From a virus, in the IMG/VR virus record IMGVR_UViG_3300025889_000547, positions 1-32,084 of that record: a stretch of DNA of 32,084 nucleotides. The stretch is one strand, 5' to 3'. Under the pieces are notes generated by a model. It saw only the letters and a program-made list of their open reading frames with translations. It had not been told where the DNA came from and ran no database searches. Positions within the stretch are counted from its first letter, which is position 1. Every line of letters begins with the position of its first letter. Of the stretch, positions 19,588-28,501 are shown in pieces. Made by a program: the position numbers and the translations under genes.

Positions 19588-22500
19588 ATGCCCTACACAG
19601 TCGAGATCCCCGGAGGTCGTGGAATAGTCGAGGTGGCTGATGACGTGCCGCTCGAGGAGGCTAGGCTTCAGATCGAGAAGCAGTTCCCTCCCAACGGTGC
19701 CGAGATCGCCGAACGACTTGCCGCGGAGCCCGACTACCAGCCGACCACTGAGGAGTTCCAGCTCTACAAGGACTACGCCAAGGAGAAGCAGACCAGCTTC
19801 ATCGACTCGTTCGCTCAAGGGGTCGACTACATGCTCGGTGTCGCAGGTCGTGGCATTGCCGCTGGTGTCACAGAAGGCGCTGCACTCAACCCAGCCAACT
19901 ACCTCGAGGCGATGGGTCAGGGCACGCAGCAGCTCTACGGGATGATCGCCCAGTCGCAGGACCCCAACAGCGCACTGTTCAAGCTCAAGGACCTGATCAA
20001 CGGCACCGGAACAATCGAGTCTCAACGTCAGCAGTTCATCGAAGCCCGGAAATTCAACCAGGACCTGGCTAAGTACGAGAGCGGTGAGTCGACCTTCCTG
20101 CCCAAGGAGATGGTCAACCCTGAGTACGTTCAGGCTGCCGCGATGATCCTCGATCCAACACTGGCCCTCCCCGGGCTAGGCGAGGTCTTCGGTGCTGGCA
20201 AGCTGGCAACCAAGGGCGTCGGGCTGGCTGCTCGAGGCGTCGGACGCGGTGTCAGTGCGCTGGCAAGGCCCGTGGAGACTGCGACCAAGGCCGGTGAACG
20301 AATCCTGGCTGAGGCAATCAATGTGACTCCAGAGGGGCTCGCAACTGCAGCACGGACGACTGGTGTGGCTTCTGCGCTCGGTGTGGCGCCCGCGGTTGGC
20401 GTGGTCGGTGCCGTTCCTCTCATTGCAACGACTGCCCGGGAAGCTGGCGAAGCTCTGGCCACTGCTGGCGAGAACCTGCTGACTCAGCCTTCCAGGATTG
20501 GCCCGCTCGAGGCCATCGGACGCATTCCTGGAGCCAACCTCCGGCAACGCACGCTCGGTGTCATCGGACAGTACGGTGGGGACGCTGCACTCGACACGGC
20601 TCTGCGGGCTACTGCTGGTTCCATCGAGGGCGGCGCGATCGGTGCTGGTCTAGGTTACCTGGGAGGCGGACAGGAAGGCGCCGGGTTCGGTGCTGGATCT
20701 GGTGCTACGATGGGTGCTGCAGGTACAGCCGCGGCTCGTGGATACCAGAAGCTCACAGGCAAGGCAGCCCGGGAAGCTCGACAGGGAGACTTCGATCGGT
20801 ACGTCGCAAGCCAGGACGAGAACACTGCTAGTCTCCTGCGTCAGATCGAGAGTCAACACGGCCTGGATGTCGCTTCCGGATTCATGGACGCCACTGCACT
20901 GGTCCGTGGTCAGCTCGGGGACGTCAACGTGACGCTGCTCTCTGCTGAGGACTACAGGAAGCGGTTCGGAACCAACAGTCGCGGTGTCCAGATTCCAGAG
21001 GCCGACACGCCTGCCATCTACGTCAACGCGGACCTCTTCGGTCAGGGCAAGGGAGACTCTCCGCTCTACACGCTGGGCCACGAGGTCTTCCACGCTCTTG
21101 AACGTTCGGAGCAGCTCGCCAGTCGTGCCAGTGATATCAAGGACGCTCTGGTCGGCAGCTATGTCGTCACAGACGGTGTCGCAACGAAGGTCACCAATGG
21201 TCTGTTCGATGACGCTGAGGTGGAGGCCAGGTTCAAGCAGTACCGGGATAAGCTGGCGCCACAACAGGCTGAGGCTCTCGCTCAGTACGACACCCCACAG
21301 AAGCGTGCGGACTTCGTTGCCTCCGAGATCGCTGCTGAGTACACGGGCGCCCTGTTCGCTGGCCAGAAGCCTGACGCTTTGCTGCGCGGATTCAGTGGTC
21401 TGACGAGGACTCTGCTTGACCAGGCGCTGACCAAGAACGCCGACTCTGCGCTCAACCGGATCGCTCAACGCATCGAGAACACGTTCGGACTGAAGCCGCT
21501 CGACTCGATCCTGTTCCCAGACCTCAAGCAGGCCAGCCCCCAGGTGAACGCGATGCTGCGGGACATGGTGCGTGCTCGACGTAAGCTCGACGAGAGGATC
21601 CTGGCCGCAGACTCGGAGCTCACCGGAGCCATCAAGCCCAGCGACATGGGCAATCCGATCGCGGCAAAAGTCGCCCAGGACTTCGGAATCGCGGAACAGA
21701 ACCCGGACGGCACGACACGTTGGCTGACTGACGAAGAGATCAACGCACGTGAGTGGCGAGACAATCAGGCGGTCCAGGACATCCTGCTGACACGCCCGGG
21801 GGCTCGACTGGTCGACGGTGTGATCCAGGGACGGTTCTCGCCTGAGCAGCTCTCGGCCATCGAGCAGAGCCAGCAGGTGTCGTCTCGGATGAAGGACAAG
21901 ATCCGGGCAGTCGCTGCGTCCATCAACAACGGCAACTCCATCTTCATCGACTACAACGCAGCCACGCGTCGGGTGAAGAACCGCATCACCGGGAAGCACA
22001 CCTCGAAGTACTCGAGCGGCATCCGGATGACTCAGCGTGAGCTCTTGCCGTACGCGTTCTACTTCTCGAAGGCTGACAACCCGGTCATCAAGGCAATCGA
22101 CCTGACCAAGGTGCGACGCGCTGTCGAGGGATTCGTTCGCAAGGATGGATCGATCGATGGCATCTGGGAGAACATGGATGGGTTCATGTCGGACCTGGCC
22201 AAGTACTTCACCAATCTCGATTCGCCACGACGTCAGCCTAGCGCAATCGCTCTCGATTCAGATGCCAAGGCCAAGTTCATGGGGGACCTGGTCAACGACA
22301 TGGAGAAGGGCGGCAGGAAGTTCGTTCGCGATTTCCGTCTGGACCGCATGGGTGCTGTCGAACCCAGGAACTTCCGGGCCAGGATCTCCGAGGAGGCAAT
22401 CCAGTTCTCCAAGATGCGTTGGATGCCCAGCGAGAACGTCGGAGACACAAAGGTCACCGGGAGCGAGGAGGGCTACAGGATCGTCTCCAAGGACAAGAAC

Positions 22501-25500
22501 AGACTTTACGGACCCGATGGGAAACTGATCGGGATCTACGACACACAACTAGAAGCAGAAAGGAAAGCAGATGCCGCTCAAGCAAGGGTACAGTCGGAAA
22601 TCGATCAGCAGCAACGTCTCGCGGGAGATGAAGGCGGGCAAGCCGCAGAAGCAGGCCGTGGCGATCGCGTTGAGCGTGGCCAGGAAAGCGGCCAAGAAGG
22701 CGGGCAAGCACTCGGTCAGGTTCGACAAGAGGGGGATGTAACCCAGTACACAAAAGAAGAGAGGGCGGCACTCTCTGAGGCCAAGAAACGGATCTCCAGG
22801 AATCTCAAGGAGTACCCAGAAGCAGTGCCGCTCTCGATGAAGGTGAACTCTAAGACTGGTCGCGTAAAATTCGATCAGCTCAAGGGGCCAGATGGTCAGC
22901 CAATCCTGGATGCAAAAGGAAGGCCAGTCGTCGATGTAGTTTTCAAGAAACGGCCTTACAAAATCAGGAACTCTCCAAAACTGTCCAAGGACAACGCAAA
23001 AGCTGTCACGCAAGCTGCTGACCTACTTGAGGCAGACGCCAGGAAAGCCATCAATATGCCCTCGGTTTCCAATGGGCTTGGATGGTACAGCCGGATGCGC
23101 GAGTTCCTGCAGACTGCTTTCGGTGCGTCCATTGAATTGTTTGGTCAGTTGCTTGGAGCGACATCAGCTCGCACACCTGTCGACACGAACTTCAGGCAGG
23201 CGCTCGAGGCCATTCGAATGTTCAGCGCAGGGAACTACGACTCTCTGCTCAACGACTTCGATGCTCACGTAAAGAAGGCCAATGCTGATGCTCAGTCTGG
23301 AGAGCTATTGAGGAGGTGGAAGGAGAAGAATCCTAAGAAGCGAAAGTCGACGTTCAAGATTCAGGACGAACTCCGCAAAGAGATCAACAGGTTCGACAAG
23401 GTCCCACTTCGTGAAAACGGAAAGAAGTTCAACGCCAACTCACAGAAAGTTCTACACGTTCTTTACGGACTTTGGCTGGATCAAACAGTTGGACCAAAGA
23501 CTCCGAACTTCGCCGGAAATCTCACTGGTCGGACGCTGAAGGCAACCATCGACGTCTGGGCTGCTCGCAATCTCAGGAGGCTTTTGTACGAGGGCAAAGC
23601 AAAGCGATGGCGAATCCTTCCAGAACAAGAATCTGGAGTTACTGATCCGGACTTCTTCTTCGCCCAGGACGTCTACGACACGGTCGCGAAACGATTGGGA
23701 ATGAACGCAGACGATCTCCAAGCCCTGATGTGGTTCATGGAGAAGGACGTCTGGGAGAAGAACGGATGGACGTCCACGGTCGGAGCAGAGAAATCCAGTT
23801 TCGACAAGGAAGCAGGCAAGTTGGCGCTGGATCGCTATCAGGCCGGTGTGACCACATTCACGACTCCGGAACAGTACAGCCCAGAAATCCAGGAGAAGGA
23901 GCGGATGGCACTCAGGAACTCGATTGCCAAGATTCCCGGAATGACGAGCTCCAGGGTAACGCACTCGGACGGAATGTATGGAGACTACATCGAGCCATCG
24001 TTTGACGTGGAGTTCTCGGTTCAACGCAAGCCAGACGGGAGCTCACAGGACATCTCAAGCCAGGTCGCAGAGATCATTCGGATTGCATCAGAGCAGGGAC
24101 GCAAACAGACCGATGTATTCGTCTCGAAGGTGGTCGACCAAAACCATCCCAACGCAAGGCCAATGGTTGAGATCGGATTCAAGAAGGCAGCTTCACCTGA
24201 AGACGTCCAGGCAGTCGTTCAAGCGTTCCGTTCCAACGGCATCGACGGATTCACGATCGCCAAGGATACCAGGGGAAAAGTCATCGGAATCAGAGCTCAG
24301 TACATCCCTGAGATCTCAGCCAGATTTGACACGATCGAGCATCTCAACCCGGACAAATCCATTGACTTCGCGACCGAATGGATGAACAAGACGAGAAACG
24401 CTGCTCTCTCGCTCGATCAGATTGAGAATGTCAGCTACAAGCAACCCGGGTGGGTATCCACTACTGTCTATGGAATCGAAGAATACAGCTCCGCAACGCC
24501 CTCGGACAATGGCCGAACTAGCCGTCGCGATGAATTGGACCGCAGGCGGGCTGTCCTCGAATCAAGACAGATACCTAGTGGGCCAGCTCCCAACGAAGGA
24601 ATGGAGCCCGGGACCCCAGGACTTCCAACTTCTGGCGGAGATGTTCAGACAGAGGTCGTTCAATCCAGGACGCCAGAGATAGCTCGCTTGATGCCTGCCG
24701 ACGTCCGAGAGCGGTCCATAAACATCAACGACTCGGATGCGGACTACACCGGGATGATTGTCAGGGGTGAAAAGACAATCGAGACACGAGACAACCCAAC
24801 AAGCCTCAAGCCGTACATCGGGAAACGCGTCGGACTTGTCAGCACTGGCACCGGAGGAAAGGCCATGCTTGTCGGATCGGCTGTCATTGGTTCACCGAAG
24901 CAGTACAACACCGAAAGCGAGTTCCGTAGGGATTACTCAAAACATCGGGTCGAGCCTCAGTCTCTGTTTGACATCAAGAAGGGATCTCCTAAGTGGGGAT
25001 TCCCATTGGAAGACGTCAGACCCATTGAGCCAGTTCCAGCTCCCGCAGGCGGAATTGTCGCGAGGAAGATGCCGGAAGGGTTCCAGTTCATGCCAAGCGA
25101 CTCGGACTACCTAGCAGCGGTTAAGTCCGGCGACACGGCCAAGGCGCAGCAGATGGTCGATCAGGCGGCTAAGGCGGCGGGGTATACGGTGGGGCCTGTG
25201 TATCATGGAACAAACGCAGAGTTCACAGAGTTCAAGCGCGGTGATCTAGGGATCCATTTCGGAACTAAAGAGCAAGCAGCGGGTCGAGGTGGAACTCGTG
25301 AAATACGGGCCTTCCTGAAGGCGAAACCAATCCGTATTGACGACGATCCCGGGTTTTGGATGGGCCGAAAGATCGTTAATTTGCTGTCGGATCAAGGGGT
25401 AAACAAAACAGAGTTGTCCAAACTATTTAACAAAGCAGCGAGCGAAGGTGGATCCTCTGGGGAGCCGAACAGCAGCGCGGATATTCTGGCTCGCGGCCTA

Positions 25501-25854
25501 ATTGAACTAGGAATCGACTCGATTCAATATCCAAACAAGTTTGAGGGAGTTGGTGAAAGCGTTGTTGTTTTAGACCCCTCCCAGATCAAATCCGCCGACC
25601 CTGTAACCCGCGACGATGCTGGGAATGTGATACCCCTGAGCCAACGATTCCAGTCTACCAACGCAGACATCCGCTACATGCCAGCCCCGGTTCCAGACCC
25701 ATCCATCCCCGGTGCCTACTCCATGTCCGGCTATCGGATCCTGCCCGGGAAGACCAAGGGCAAGCTGCGGGTCTACTCTCCAGATGGCTCATTGGCTGGC
25801 GTAGTCGGCTCCGTGGATGACGCGCAGCGCATGATTCAACGCAAACTCCGCTGA
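19588..25854 (+). CDS. Giant polyvalent ejection protein: metallopeptidase, ASCH and ADP-ribosyltransferase-like domains
   Basis: 2088 residues. The N-terminus (YTVEIPGGRGIVEVADDVPL) is a common start of phage ejected proteins. Gly/Ala-rich hydrophobic parts (about 195-385) could insert in membrane. The metallopeptidase has H498-E-V-F-H502, with E580 as likely third zinc ligand. GEKTIETR at 1727-1734 marks an ASCH domain (RNA- or nucleotide-binding). V-Y-H-G-T (1871-1875), IHFG (1889-1892) and VVLDPSQIKSA mark an ART-PolyVal-type ADP-ribosyltransferase-like domain. Four [RQ]-hydrophobic-M-P-[SA] tags lie at 944, 1700, 1833 and 2029. A GYRI module is duplicated (962-997, 2048-2088). Residues 995-1051 are low-complexity and overlap an out-of-frame gene. 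It likely enters the host with the DNA. Confidence 0.8.
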   Translation: MPYTVEIPGGRGIVEVADDVPLEEARLQIEKQFPPNGAEIAERLAAEPDYQPTTEEFQLYKDYAKEKQTSFIDSFAQGVDYMLGVAGRGIAAGVTEGAALNPANYLEAMGQGTQQLYGMIAQSQDPNSALFKLKDLINGTGTIESQRQQFIEARKFNQDLAKYESGESTFLPKEMVNPEYVQAAAMILDPTLALPGLGEVFGAGKLATKGVGLAARGVGRGVSALARPVETATKAGERILAEAINVTPEGLATAARTTGVASALGVAPAVGVVGAVPLIATTAREAGEALATAGENLLTQPSRIGPLEAIGRIPGANLRQRTLGVIGQYGGDAALDTALRATAGSIEGGAIGAGLGYLGGGQEGAGFGAGSGATMGAAGTAAARGYQKLTGKAAREARQGDFDRYVASQDENTASLLRQIESQHGLDVASGFMDATALVRGQLGDVNVTLLSAEDYRKRFGTNSRGVQIPEADTPAIYVNADLFGQGKGDSPLYTLGHEVFHALERSEQLASRASDIKDALVGSYVVTDGVATKVTNGLFDDAEVEARFKQYRDKLAPQQAEALAQYDTPQKRADFVASEIAAEYTGALFAGQKPDALLRGFSGLTRTLLDQALTKNADSALNRIAQRIENTFGLKPLDSILFPDLKQASPQVNAMLRDMVRARRKLDERILAADSELTGAIKPSDMGNPIAAKVAQDFGIAEQNPDGTTRWLTDEEINAREWRDNQAVQDILLTRPGARLVDGVIQGRFSPEQLSAIEQSQQVSSRMKDKIRAVAASINNGNSIFIDYNAATRRVKNRITGKHTSKYSSGIRMTQRELLPYAFYFSKADNPVIKAIDLTKVRRAVEGFVRKDGSIDGIWENMDGFMSDLAKYFTNLDSPRRQPSAIALDSDAKAKFMGDLVNDMEKGGRKFVRDFRLDRMGAVEPRNFRARISEEAIQFSKMRWMPSENVGDTKVTGSEEGYRIVSKDKNRLYGPDGKLIGIYDTQLEAERKADAAQARVQSEIDQQQRLAGDEGGQAAEAGRGDRVERGQESGQEGGQALGQVRQEGDVTQYTKEERAALSEAKKRISRNLKEYPEAVPLSMKVNSKTGRVKFDQLKGPDGQPILDAKGRPVVDVVFKKRPYKIRNSPKLSKDNAKAVTQAADLLEADARKAINMPSVSNGLGWYSRMREFLQTAFGASIELFGQLLGATSARTPVDTNFRQALEAIRMFSAGNYDSLLNDFDAHVKKANADAQSGELLRRWKEKNPKKRKSTFKIQDELRKEINRFDKVPLRENGKKFNANSQKVLHVLYGLWLDQTVGPKTPNFAGNLTGRTLKATIDVWAARNLRRLLYEGKAKRWRILPEQESGVTDPDFFFAQDVYDTVAKRLGMNADDLQALMWFMEKDVWEKNGWTSTVGAEKSSFDKEAGKLALDRYQAGVTTFTTPEQYSPEIQEKERMALRNSIAKIPGMTSSRVTHSDGMYGDYIEPSFDVEFSVQRKPDGSSQDISSQVAEIIRIASEQGRKQTDVFVSKVVDQNHPNARPMVEIGFKKAASPEDVQAVVQAFRSNGIDGFTIAKDTRGKVIGIRAQYIPEISARFDTIEHLNPDKSIDFATEWMNKTRNAALSLDQIENVSYKQPGWVSTTVYGIEEYSSATPSDNGRTSRRDELDRRRAVLESRQIPSGPAPNEGMEPGTPGLPTSGGDVQTEVVQSRTPEIARLMPADVRERSININDSDADYTGMIVRGEKTIETRDNPTSLKPYIGKRVGLVSTGTGGKAMLVGSAVIGSPKQYNTESEFRRDYSKHRVEPQSLFDIKKGSPKWGFPLEDVRPIEPVPAPAGGIVARKMPEGFQFMPSDSDYLAAVKSGDTAKAQQMVDQAAKAAGYTVGPVYHGTNAEFTEFKRGDLGIHFGTKEQAAGRGGTREIRAFLKAKPIRIDDDPGFWMGRKIVNLLSDQGVNKTELSKLFNKAASEGGSSGEPNSSADILARGLIELGIDSIQYPNKFEGVGESVVVLDPSQIKSADPVTRDDAGNVIPLSQRFQSTNADIRYMPAPVPDPSIPGAYSMSGYRILPGKTKGKLRVYSPDGSLAGVVGSVDDAQRMIQRKLR
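22571..22741 (+). CDS. Nested small basic protein (DUF6496-like) out of frame in the giant gene
   Basis: 56 residues, MPLKQGYSRKSISSNVSREM, then KAGKPQKQAVAIALSVARK, then a Lys/Ala-rich end and FDKRGM, stop TAA. The order MPLKxGxSxKxISxN ... EMKAGKPQKQAVAIAL is one I firmly recognise from small basic phage proteins (I recall DUF6496 as the family name; this needs a search). AGGA at 22561-22564 is a ribosome binding site six bases before the ATG. By hand count 52 of 56 codons end in G or C in this frame, against 26 of 56 for the enclosing frame over the same bases. The enclosing frame here is Gly/Gln/Glu/Arg low complexity. Either dual coding or a relic swallowed by a fusion. Confidence 0.75.
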   Translation: MPLKQGYSRKSISSNVSREMKAGKPQKQAVAIALSVARKAAKKAGKHSVRFDKRGM

Positions 25855-25857
25855 CCC

Positions 25858-26448
25858 ATGGCCTACAAATCCGCAGATCACGCGAGGCAGACCGACAAGC
25901 TCCGCACGGATGTCGACGGGCTGAGTGTCCGCTGGGCCATCCTCCAGGATCAGCGTTCCAGCGGGACTTCTGCCGGCAGCTCCAGGTCGACGCTCACTGC
26001 GGACATCACGTACATCACCGCGGACTCCACCGAGTACACAGCCGACATGACTTCGGCAAACTGGTTGAACCGGGAGCTCAACACGATCGTTTCCGACGAA
26101 GCTGGCATCATCGAGAGACTGGACGGCAACACATTCCTCCTGGCGCCTGGTCGGTACATGATCCGAGCTCGTGCTTCGTTCCACTATACCCACGGGACTC
26201 GCGTGCAGATCTGGGACGCAACCAACGAGGAGTCAGTCGGTGAGAGCTGCAATGTCTACGTCGAGAACACTGTCGACGTATGCCCAGAAGCTGTCGCCAT
26301 CGTCGAGCCCAACAAACCGACCACCTACAGGATCAAGCGACGCTGCGAGCGCAGTACACCAGACGGTCTGGGTCGAGCAGTGAGCTTCGGGACCCCTGAG
26401 ATCTATTGCGTCGTCGAAGTCGCCCAGATCGCCAGCCTCAAGCCGTAA
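25858..26448 (+). CDS. Virion protein with C-terminal jelly-roll domain
   Basis: 196 residues. Residues 1-35 form a short helix (coiled-coil-like, DHARQTDKLRTDVDGLSVRW), followed by a Ser/Thr-rich linker. The C-terminal 130 residues have the strand order of a C1q/TNF-like jelly roll: LDGNTFLLAPGRYMIRARAS, then VQIWDATNEESVGES, then TYRIKRRCE and FGTPEIYCVVEVAQI. Such domains cap fibres or decorate capsids and form trimers. It is the last gene before the promoter-like region, three bases after the giant gene and far from the other fibre genes, so it may be a separate head decoration or short fibre. Confidence 0.65.
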   Translation: MAYKSADHARQTDKLRTDVDGLSVRWAILQDQRSSGTSAGSSRSTLTADITYITADSTEYTADMTSANWLNRELNTIVSDEAGIIERLDGNTFLLAPGRYMIRARASFHYTHGTRVQIWDATNEESVGESCNVYVENTVDVCPEAVAIVEPNKPTTYRIKRRCERSTPDGLGRAVSFGTPEIYCVVEVAQIASLKP

Positions 26449-26460
26449 GTAGAATTCTCC

Positions 26461-26490
26461 TTGACTCTGTAATTTTTTACAGGGCACTAT
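26461..26490 (+). promoter_or_regulatory. Candidate promoter of the replication block
   Basis: TTGACT (26461-26466) is one base from the sigma70-type -35 consensus. Eighteen bases on, CACTAT (26485-26490) is a poor -10 (three of six). Transcription would begin close to the ATG at 26497, giving a very short or absent leader. It lies at the switch from virion genes to recombination and replication genes. The weak -10 keeps confidence moderate. Confidence 0.4.
26467..26482. promoter_or_regulatory. Palindrome in the promoter spacer, operator candidate
   Basis: CTGTAA (26467-26472) and TTACAG (26477-26482) form a perfect inverted repeat around TTTT. It fills the spacer between the proposed -35 and -10, where a bound repressor would block polymerase. 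The next gene encodes a ribbon-helix-helix protein, a class that binds such short palindromes as dimers, so autoregulation is a natural guess. Confidence 0.45.
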
Positions 26491-26496
26491 CTACTC

Positions 26497-26649
26497 ATGG
26501 CGGCAAAGGGCAAACAACGGACTGCAACGGTCCAGATCGACCTAGTCACTCACACTCTCCTCGTAGCCTGGTGCCGGGACCGAGGTATCAAGCTGGGGCA
26601 TTACGTCTCTCAGCTCATTCAAGAGGCACTCAACAAGCAAACCAAGTAA
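26497..26649 (+). CDS. Ribbon-helix-helix DNA-binding protein
   Basis: 50 residues. A basic start (MAAKGKQR) leads into the strand TATVQIDL (residues 9-16), then a helix with hydrophobic Leu, Val and Trp (about 18-28), a turn RGIKLG, and a second helix HYVSQLIQEAL (35-45). This is the compact Arc/MetJ-type fold, in which the strand of a dimer reads the DNA major groove. It is the first gene after the candidate promoter and palindrome, so it probably controls its own operon and the replication genes. It has no strong ribosome binding site, fitting a leaderless or nearly leaderless message. A longer open frame of the next gene covers it and can hide it in automated calls. Confidence 0.75.
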   Translation: MAAKGKQRTATVQIDLVTHTLLVAWCRDRGIKLGHYVSQLIQEALNKQTK

Positions 26650-26651
26650 CC

Positions 26652-27506
26652 ATGACTAACAACCAAGTGGCACTCGTGCCCGTTTCGACCTACGACAAGG
26701 TCCAGGATCCAATGACCGCGGCGACTCAGCTCGGTGAATGGATTGCGAAGTCCGGCATGTTCGGATGCGAACGCGTCGAGCAGGGCAGCATCCTCGCCAT
26801 GCAATGCCTGGTGGAACGCAAGGCTCCCCTCGAGTTGGCCAAGCATTACCACATCATCGGTGGCAAGCTGTCGCTTCGTGCTGACGCCATGCTGGCATTG
26901 TATCGGGAACGCGGTGGCAAGGTCCAGTGGCTGCAATTCGATGACCAGGCTGCCAAGGCCAAGTGGTCCTACGACGGCAACAACGTGGAGATCGCGTACA
27001 CATCAGACGACGCCAAGCGTGCTGGCCTACTCCCCGCTCGTCCCGGATCCGGTTGGGCGAAGTTCCCCGCGGAGATGCTCAGGGCTCGTCTCATCAGCAA
27101 GGCAGTCCGCATGCTGGCCCCGGAAGTCTGCACCGGCACGTACACCCCGGAGGAGCTCGAGGATATCCAGCGTCCCCAACCCGCACAGGTCGTCATCGGC
27201 TCCATGTCGTCAGTCGCTCAGTCTTCCCAAGTCGAGGTCTCTGTGGCTCAGGCTGAGATCGTCGAAGAGGCCGCGACACTGACTCCCCAGGAGGCTGTCC
27301 TGAAGCTCGTCGAGGAACGTCAGTTGGTGCAGCAGGCTGAGACCTTCCTGTTCGGCAAGAAGTGGATCTCCGGAGAGCAGACCATCAAGGACCTCTCCAG
27401 CCAGCGTTGCGCGAAGATCCTGGCCAAGCCCGAGGCGTTCATCCGTGCGGTGCTCGATGACGTCAACTCGACCCCGGAGATCCCGGCTGAGGAGGGCGCA
27501 CAGTGA
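26652..27506 (+). CDS. RecT-like single-strand annealing protein
   Basis: 284 residues from ATG 26652, two bases after the regulator's stop; in-frame starts back to 26406 would overlap that gene. The order is that of RecT/Red-beta-type phage annealing proteins: LGEWIAKSGMFG, SILAMQCLVERKAPLELAKH, GGKLSLRADAMLALYRERGG, then YTSDDAKRAGL and, at residues 134-169, GWAKFPAEMLRARLISKAVR followed by TGTYTPEEL. These proteins coat single-stranded DNA and anneal it to complementary strands. The C-terminal 110 residues are an acidic linker and a small helical domain. The next gene is a RecB-like nuclease, the usual exonuclease partner. Confidence 0.82.
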   Translation: MTNNQVALVPVSTYDKVQDPMTAATQLGEWIAKSGMFGCERVEQGSILAMQCLVERKAPLELAKHYHIIGGKLSLRADAMLALYRERGGKVQWLQFDDQAAKAKWSYDGNNVEIAYTSDDAKRAGLLPARPGSGWAKFPAEMLRARLISKAVRMLAPEVCTGTYTPEELEDIQRPQPAQVVIGSMSSVAQSSQVEVSVAQAEIVEEAATLTPQEAVLKLVEERQLVQQAETFLFGKKWISGEQTIKDLSSQRCAKILAKPEAFIRAVLDDVNSTPEIPAEEGAQ

Positions 27507-28501
27507 GTTTCGTGACTCGTCCATCCAGCCTGCCTGCCCAGGCCAAGTCGCCAAGGTGGGAGTCCGCAGGCTCGACTGCCATCACCGAGGCCGGCAACGA
27601 TCGCCACACAGCCCTCGAGGAACTCCTCGCCGGGAAACGCTCTGTCTTCGACCTGTTGCCGGAGCACGAACAGCAGGCCGTCCAGTGGGCTCACGACTAC
27701 ATCAGGCTCAACGCGAATGGAGCCATACTATCGGAGCAGCCTGTCGAAATTAAGCGTGGCGGCGTCCCTGTCATGCGCGGGACTGCTGACGCTATTGGCG
27801 TTCGTCATCTTTTCGACTTGAAGTGGGTCGAGCGGAACTACAGTCAGCAGATGGCCGCTTATGCCCTGGGTGTCATGCAGACCTTCGGGTACGACTCCAT
27901 CACGGTCCACGTGCTCTTCGGGGAGACTCAGAGGGTTCAGCGGTATCCGATCACGATGGCTGAGGCCGAGGCACTGGTCTACCCGGTCCTGGACGCTGTC
28001 GCGAATCCTGAAACTCCCTGTCGTGCGTCCGAGTACTGCGGCTGGTGCAAACATCAGACCACCTGCCCGGTTATCCTGGGTCACGTTGGAAAGGTTGGTG
28101 ACGCCTACGAGATGGTCCGCCTCGAGGACTTCCACCTAGCCTCCGTCGATCAGGTCGCAGCCGCGCTCAACCTCGCCAAGGTCGCTGAGGAATGGGCCGA
28201 CTCGATCAAGTCCAAGGCACGTGACCTGGCTTTGTCCGGGATCCGCATTCCAGGCTACGAGATCAAGGAACGGTCCGGCGCCCGGGAGATCGCACCTGAG
28301 AACATCAACATCGCGTTCGAGCGCCTGCAGATGCCTCCAGAGGTCTTCCTCCGGGCATGCAAGGTATCCATCACCAGGCTCGTTGAGGAACTCACCACCA
28401 ACGGACTCAGCAAGAAAGAAGCGAACCAAGCAGTCAACGACCGCCTGCTCGGACTCGTCGAACAGAAACCCGCGGTCAAGTACCTAGCCAAACTCAAGTA
28501 A
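27503..28501 (+). CDS. Cas4/RecB-like PD-(D/E)XK nuclease (DUF2800-like)
   Basis: 332 residues from a GTG overlapping the upstream stop (GTGA). The nuclease core is readable: His35 (GNDRHTALE), Asp96 (RGTADAIGV), Asp105-Leu-Lys107 (FDLKW) and the QxxxY-type motif at 116-120 (QMAAY). Four Cys at 173, 179, 182 and 188 (CRASEYCGWCKHQTTC) could hold an iron-sulphur cluster. The arrangement agrees with DUF2800-type phage nucleases; unlike classical Cas4, all four Cys are C-terminal to the core. The C-terminal 130 residues are helical and may bind the annealing protein. It would resect DNA ends to make single strands for the annealing protein. Confidence 0.82.
   Translation: MSFVTRPSSLPAQAKSPRWESAGSTAITEAGNDRHTALEELLAGKRSVFDLLPEHEQQAVQWAHDYIRLNANGAILSEQPVEIKRGGVPVMRGTADAIGVRHLFDLKWVERNYSQQMAAYALGVMQTFGYDSITVHVLFGETQRVQRYPITMAEAEALVYPVLDAVANPETPCRASEYCGWCKHQTTCPVILGHVGKVGDAYEMVRLEDFHLASVDQVAAALNLAKVAEEWADSIKSKARDLALSGIRIPGYEIKERSGAREIAPENINIAFERLQMPPEVFLRACKVSITRLVEELTTNGLSKKEANQAVNDRLLGLVEQKPAVKYLAKLK

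What the first reader, a model, noticed from the sequence alone, without database searches (positions are those of the whole stretch)
22571..22741. Complete small gene nested out of frame inside the 2088-codon gene
Seen: a 56-codon frame with ATG, ribosome binding site AGGA and TAA, reading MPLKQGYSRK ... GKPQKQAVAIAL. In this frame 52 of 56 codons end in G or C; the enclosing frame has 26 of 56 over the same bases and reads as Gly/Gln/Glu/Arg filler. Known: the motif order belongs to a small basic phage family (I recall DUF6496). Inference: this is either true dual coding on one strand, or a formerly separate gene swallowed when two larger genes fused. Automated callers will drop it because it lies wholly inside a long gene.
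Basis: partly seen in the sequence, partly recalled or inferred. Interest (0 to 1): 0.85.

Follow-up and report, generated by a model that had tools for sequence, protein, structure and literature searches.

The report
Hidden gene inside swappable phage gene
A small gene for a protein family found in phage particles lies out of frame inside a giant phage gene, in this phage and in every one of about 70 relatives that could be checked, and its two ends mark exactly where these phages swap the toxin-like tail half of the giant protein.

Summary
The 56-codon frame (22571-22741) is a real gene of phage family phrog_2423 (E 1e-19), lying wholly out of frame inside the 2088-codon gene. In IMG/VR I found about 69 further contigs with the same large gene. 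Every copy that reaches the site, in three diverged backbones, carries the small gene at the same place and in the same frame. In 28 of 29 records of 35-44 kb it is the only copy.

Selection acts on the nested frame (pN/pS 0.21-0.27; read in the large frame, the same bases give 2.0-2.6). The large frame is kept open and free of T-first codons, and AlphaFold gives no confident structure there. The domain just upstream is a paralogue of the large protein's own C-terminus, so the small gene was probably swallowed when the large protein lost its stop. Near-identical 3-kb downstream modules are attached to unrelated upstream halves. The nested gene is therefore the joint at which this polyvalent protein changes its C-terminal effector half. 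Translation in this phage and the recombination mechanism are inferred.

The parts
22571..22741 (+). nested gene, 56 aa, phrog_2423 family; predicted helical hairpin with a basic tail (pI 11.5)
   Evidence: intact in about 70 contigs; pN/pS 0.21-0.27
22561..22564 (+). Shine-Dalgarno-like AGGA, six bases before the nested ATG; present in backbone types 1 and 3, absent in type 2
19588..25854 (+). enclosing polyvalent gene, 2088 codons
21079..21093 (+). HEVFH (HExxH) motif in the N-terminal half, zincin-like metallopeptidase signature
   Evidence: sequence; motif meaning from PMC5512222
22390..22569 (+). internal copy of the C-terminal domain, probably a former C-terminus; its last helix runs into the nested ATG
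22570..22740 (+). enclosing-frame stretch over the nested gene (residues 995-1051), Gly/Gln/Arg/Ala/Glu-rich, no confident structure, read as a disordered linker
22742..25659 (+). exchangeable downstream module of the enclosing protein; begins at the nested stop
23128..23739 (+). DUF7178 region in the downstream module
25198..25599 (+). ART-PolyVal-like region (27.3 bits, below the cut-off of 31.2 in this window; above it in L088, L111 and L113)
25660..25851 (+). C-terminal domain, constant end of the enclosing protein and paralogue of 22390-22569

Best explanation
The 56-codon frame is a functional gene of a small phage protein family (phrog_2423) whose Pbunavirus member has been found in virions. 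It is read from its own start inside, and +1 out of frame with, the gene of a giant polyvalent protein. Probable history: the giant protein once ended with its conserved C-terminal domain, and the small gene followed directly as a free-standing gene. Loss of the stop let the large frame run on through the small gene in the +1 frame into a second polyvalent module with its own C-terminal domain. Present working: the same 171 bases give a basic helical-hairpin protein in one frame and a flexible polar linker in the other. Because the nested protein holds these bases nearly constant while the flanking modules diverge, they form a shared stretch of homology and a tolerant linker. Recombination there swaps the C-terminal effector half (ADP-ribosyltransferase, PBECR nuclease and unknown modules) onto different N-terminal halves without losing frame or small gene. 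Shown: the gene's identity, its conservation and selection, the open polar linker frame, the domain paralogy, and mosaic junctions at both ends of the nested gene. Inferred: translation in this phage, the fusion event, and homologous recombination as the mechanism.
For: Family: phrog_2423 E 1.2e-19; all 70 sampled relatives match it. Virion evidence for a homologue: PB1 gp20 is 46% identical to the nested protein. Its counterpart ORF22 in the PB1-like phage SCUT-S1 (7.46 kDa, after ORF20 of 84.53 and ORF21 of 31.72 kDa) was found in virions with 7 peptides, 77% coverage (PMC6521218); masses fit PB1 gp18-gp20. Universality: 64 contigs from a query without the small gene, 5 more of a third backbone, and every C-terminal-domain ORF not cut at its 5' side. 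Only copy in 28 of 29 records. Selection: nested pN/pS 0.21-0.27, enclosing frame on the same bases 2.0-2.6, enclosing frame upstream 0.26-0.29. Enclosing frame: wobble T 0/690 where it would make a stop and 2.1% elsewhere, against 20.9% in flanking codons. Linker pLDDT mostly 33-48. Domain paralogy E 3e-14. Joint: identity steps at the nested ATG and stop; L103/L134 98% over 3227 nt starting at the nested stop but 35% just upstream; nested-versus-upstream distance correlation 0.45 against 0.70-0.93 for equal-length upstream segments.
Against: There is no expression data for any nested member. Type 2 backbones lack a clear Shine-Dalgarno sequence. No unfused relative was found. The closest free-standing homologues lie after a P22-type coat gene or another structural gene, not after a polyvalent gene. 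The junction pattern shows mosaicism; it does not prove that the nested bases were the recombination substrate. Low AlphaFold confidence comes partly from a shallow alignment (9 sequences). All nested members are uncultivated metagenome contigs apart from fragments in bacterial MAGs.
Confidence: 0.8

Rival explanations
1. Only the nested gene matters at these bases: the enclosing frame is an unselected spacer that happens to be open.
For: Enclosing-frame pN/pS over the nested bases is 2.0-2.6, and the residues are low-complexity filler.
Against: The frame is open in every relative although chance openness under own codon usage is about 6%. T is depleted even where it would not make a stop (2.1% against 20.9%), so polar residues are favoured. 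Length changes among nested copies are in threes. More than 230 further codons with known domains follow.
Confidence: 0.1
2. The nested gene is only a conserved passenger; module swapping happens by other means and the junction seen there is a by-product of its conservation.
For: Any conserved gene between variable modules looks like a joint. The linker may simply be the place that tolerates fusions.
Against: Junctions sit at the exact start and stop of the nested gene. Cross-backbone pairs share downstream DNA at 93-99% beginning there. Nested-gene distances are decoupled from upstream distances.
Confidence: 0.3
3. The nested frame is reached by +1 ribosomal frameshifting from the enclosing frame, giving a truncated polyvalent protein with a basic tail.
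For: The nested frame is +1 and is open for a varying number of codons upstream in several members.
Against: The N-terminus MPLK.GYS is the same as in free-standing homologues from the Met on. Upstream bases differ between backbones while the ATG is kept. No shared slippery site was seen by eye.
Confidence: 0.04
4. The small frame is a chance open frame or a dead relic in a GC-rich gene.
For: High GC3 makes long chance frames common in this window (119 ORFs of 80 aa or more).
Against: Profile match E 1e-19, pN/pS 0.21-0.27, intact in all relatives.
Confidence: 0.01

Closest known systems
phrog_2423 / DUF6496-like small phage proteins (e.g. Pseudomonas phage PB1 gp20)
   Same: Same family by profile; same size, MPL N-terminus and GK.QKQAVAIA core; head-gene neighbourhood in PB1, Serratia phage MyoSmar and P22-like phages; a PB1-like member was found in virions (PMC6521218).
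   Different: Free-standing genes there; here wholly inside another gene, with a distinct C-terminus RFDKRGM.
Polyvalent proteins of phages (Iyer et al. 2017, PMC5512222)
   Same: Very long multidomain protein encoded with virion genes; HExxH motif, ART-PolyVal and PBECR modules, variable architecture.
   Different: That paper's text contains no occurrence of 'overlap' and uses 'nested' only for a hairpin fold in the passages shown; a fixed nested gene at the swap point is not described there.
Embedded phage genes such as lambda Rz1 in Rz (from general knowledge; PMC5295617 came up)
   Same: A complete small gene inside another gene, same strand, different frame, conserved across relatives.
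   Different: Rz and Rz1 are functional partners in lysis; here the two proteins are unrelated families and the small gene also exists free-standing elsewhere. It also marks module junctions.
Polymorphic toxins with a conserved N-terminal part and exchangeable C-terminal toxin domains (general knowledge; compared in PMC5512222)
   Same: Constant upstream part, junction, exchangeable C-terminal effector part.
   Different: The junction is an out-of-frame gene rather than a protein motif, and a constant C-terminal domain follows the variable module.

Membership tests
phrog_2423 | match to the family profile over most of its length | tested here: met
   E 1.2e-19, residues 1-45 to profile 1-45 of 52
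phrog_2423 | complete gene with its own start, stop and ribosome binding site | tested here: met
   ATG, TAA, AGGA; the Shine-Dalgarno sequence is missing in type 2 relatives
phrog_2423 | protein is made and present in virions | not testable with these tools
   shown only for a homologue in a PB1-like phage (PMC6521218)
PF20106 DUF6496 | score at or above the Pfam gathering cut-off of 24 bits | tested here: not met
   15.1 bits, E 0.03; 32 of 70 relatives match at E up to 0.1
dual-coding (overlapping) gene pair | nested frame under purifying selection | tested here: met
   pN/pS 0.21-0.27
dual-coding (overlapping) gene pair | enclosing frame also constrained over the overlap | tested here: met
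   open in all relatives; T-first codons depleted; the exact residues are free to vary
dual-coding (overlapping) gene pair | both proteins expressed | not testable with these tools
   needs proteomics or ribosome profiling
phage polyvalent protein | several effector or enzyme domains in one long virion-cluster protein | tested here: met
   DUF7178 and ART-PolyVal-like here; ART-PolyVal and PBECR5 above cut-off in relatives; capsid protein gene in the same strand array
phage polyvalent protein | packaged and injected into the host | not testable with these tools
   no proteome of this clade

The most novel reading that the evidence does not exclude
An essential, out-of-frame virion gene serves as the fixed recombination joint of a hypervariable giant protein. 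Selection on the nested protein preserves the DNA homology, and the second frame supplies a tolerant linker. Effector modules can then be exchanged while frame is kept, and recombinants that break the joint lose a needed gene.
Probability: 0.45. Interest if true: 0.85.

Novelty: new variant of a known kind. Interest (0 to 1): 0.72.

Why it matters
Gene callers normally drop such a frame, so a conserved phage gene (the only copy in 28 of 29 records) is probably missing from annotation in this whole group. It gives a clear case of a known free-standing gene captured inside another gene, rather than a new frame arising by overprinting. It also suggests a testable role for gene overlap: keeping a stretch of DNA constant so that the variable effector half of a giant protein can be exchanged there.

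Tried and rejected
Looked for the unfused ancestor (large gene ending before the small gene) with queries for the upstream domain, three N-terminal or upstream alignments and the C-terminal domain in IMG/VR, with the upstream and C-terminal domains in GTDB genomes, and with both in the phage collection: none found. Two of the nearest capsid relatives, phage C75C1 and Sinorhizobium phage phiM5, carry neither the large protein's domains nor the small gene. Free-standing homologue records searched lack the C-terminal domain (no positive control in that call). Fold search of the hairpin model gave nothing significant, and no solved structure matches the family profile. The paper library has no paper naming DUF6496. 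Rejected: chance frame, sequencing indel (about 70 contigs agree), frameshift product, de novo overprinting (free-standing homologues in unrelated phages).

Full report
Observation. The frame 22571-22741 is as described: 56 codons, ATG to TAA, AGGA six bases before the start. It is +1 relative to the ORF 19588-25854 of 2088 codons. GC3 counts are 52/56 and 26/56.

Identity of the small protein. It matches phrog_2423 at E 1.2e-19 over residues 1-45, and all 70 sampled relatives match the same family. Pfam DUF6496 is only a sub-threshold match for this member (15.1 against 24 bits), although 32 of 70 relatives match it at E up to 0.1. AlphaFold gives two helices (9-21, 26-43) at pLDDT about 90 and a basic tail; pI is 11.5. 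Elsewhere the gene is free-standing. It follows a P22-type coat gene in MW202867, and the ends of the upstream ORFs in several close relatives look like the same coat family. It also follows a head morphogenesis gene in Pseudomonas phage PB1 and Serratia phage MyoSmar. In the PB1-like phage SCUT-S1, ORF22 (7.46 kDa), right after ORF20 (84.53 kDa) and ORF21 (31.72 kDa), was found in virions with 7 peptides and 77% coverage (PMC6521218). The masses of PB1 gp18, gp19 and gp20 are 84.54, 31.46 and 7.55 kDa, so ORF22 is taken to be the homologue of this family (inference from order and mass).

The large protein. It has an HEVFH (HExxH) motif, a DUF7178 region and an ART-PolyVal-like region below its cut-off. 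Relatives carry ART-PolyVal and PBECR5 above cut-off in the part after the small gene. With the SU10-like capsid gene in the same array, it fits the phage polyvalent proteins of Iyer et al. (PMC5512222).

Conservation of the arrangement. A 146-residue alignment of the large protein just upstream of the small gene, not containing it, found 67 IMG/VR loci. Every locus that reaches the site (two are cut by contig ends) has the small gene at the same frame offset, with the large frame open beyond it. A further five contigs carry a third upstream type, also with the nested gene. A query for the C-terminal domain gave the same answer: the only ORFs without the nested gene are cut at their 5' side. 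In total this is about 69 contigs plus the window, with no exception. In 28 of 29 records of 35-44 kb the nested copy is the only one; the 29th has two nested copies at opposite contig ends.

Selection. In the nested frame pN/pS is 0.21 (type 1) and 0.27 (type 2). Reading the same bases in the enclosing frame gives 2.58 and 2.01, and 147 upstream codons of the enclosing frame give 0.29 and 0.26. Protein-level constraint at these bases therefore sits in the nested frame. The enclosing frame is nevertheless shaped. T at the nested wobble position, which is the first base of an enclosing codon, occurs in 0 of 690 T-capable codons where it would create a stop. Elsewhere it occurs in 2.1%, against 20.9% in flanking enclosing codons and about 25-31% in free-standing homologues. 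A random synonymous rewrite under each phage's own usage leaves the frame open in a median 6% of cases. The resulting stretch is rich in Gly, Gln, Arg, Ala and Glu and AlphaFold gives it pLDDT mostly 33-48 (only nine sequences, so low confidence there is expected in part). The picture is a stop-free polar linker whose exact residues are free.

Origin. The domain that ends at the nested ATG (22390-22569) is a paralogue of the large protein's own last domain (25660-25851): 40% identity in the window and hhalign probability 98, E 3e-14, between the two family alignments. In the terminal copy the last helix is followed at once by the stop; in the internal copy the nested ATG lies at that point. 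The simplest history is that the internal copy was once the C-terminus, the small gene followed it, and loss of the stop fused the protein to a second module. No unfused relative was found, so this is inference.

The joint. Comparing backbone types 1 and 2, nucleotide identity is 0.47 in the last 15 bases before the nested ATG and 0.95 in the first 15 from it. It is 0.92 in the last 15 bases of the nested gene and 0.48 then 0.35 after the stop. Even within type 1, identity falls from 0.93 to 0.43 at the stop, because many different modules follow. Pairs from different types share near-identical modules from the stop onward: L103/L134 98.0% over 3227 nt and L121/L150 97.8% over 3116 nt, with 35-38% identity in the 60 bases upstream of the nested gene. 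Conversely, 93 same-type pairs have over 90% identity upstream and under 45% downstream. Distances in the nested gene correlate only 0.45 with upstream distances, against 0.70-0.93 for equal-length upstream segments. So the nested gene is the point where upstream and downstream halves are exchanged. Homologous recombination within it is a reasonable mechanism, and RecT-like and exonuclease genes lie just downstream, but this is inferred; conserved function alone could leave a similar pattern.

Caveats. Types 1 and 3 have AGGA before the start; type 2 has no clear Shine-Dalgarno sequence. There is no expression data for any nested member. Sequences counted here are related, so counts are not independent events; the three backbone types are the conservative unit.

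Verdict. The gene is real and dual-coding, of a known small family, captured inside a polyvalent gene, and it coincides with the module-swap joint of that gene. This is a new variant of known kinds (embedded phage gene, polyvalent protein shuffling), with the link between the two as the unexpected part.

Noticed in passing
window 22414-22440, 25669-25700 and downstream modules of L086-L152: A short motif (F/Y/W)MP recurs at module boundaries of the large protein (RWMP, FQFMP, IRYMP, RFMP); it may be a cleavage site or a scar of module joining.
   Followed up: no
L095 and L103 (same contig), also L204/L160, L276/L302 and L199/L286: Several contigs carry pieces of two different versions of the large gene at their two ends, as if assembly of a circular or permuted genome broke inside this gene because of strain variation.
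   Followed up: partly
L131-L151 (type 2 backbones), 20 bases before the nested ATG: Type 2 relatives keep the nested gene without a clear Shine-Dalgarno sequence (GCAGAAAAAGATT-ATG).
   Followed up: partly
L219:3278-3946 (Tunturiibacter phage Tunturi_3): The small-protein match lies inside a 222-codon annotated gene, possibly an in-frame domain of a larger protein; frame not checked.
   Followed up: no
L322 (Verrucomicrobiota MAG contig) and L323 (Paceibacterota MAG contig): Pieces of this large gene are binned into two bacterial MAGs of very different phyla; probably phage contigs mis-binned, so the host is unknown.
   Followed up: no
window 26406-28501: RecT-like gene and exonuclease gene lie directly downstream of the large gene, a recombination pair next to the swapping gene.
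   Followed up: no
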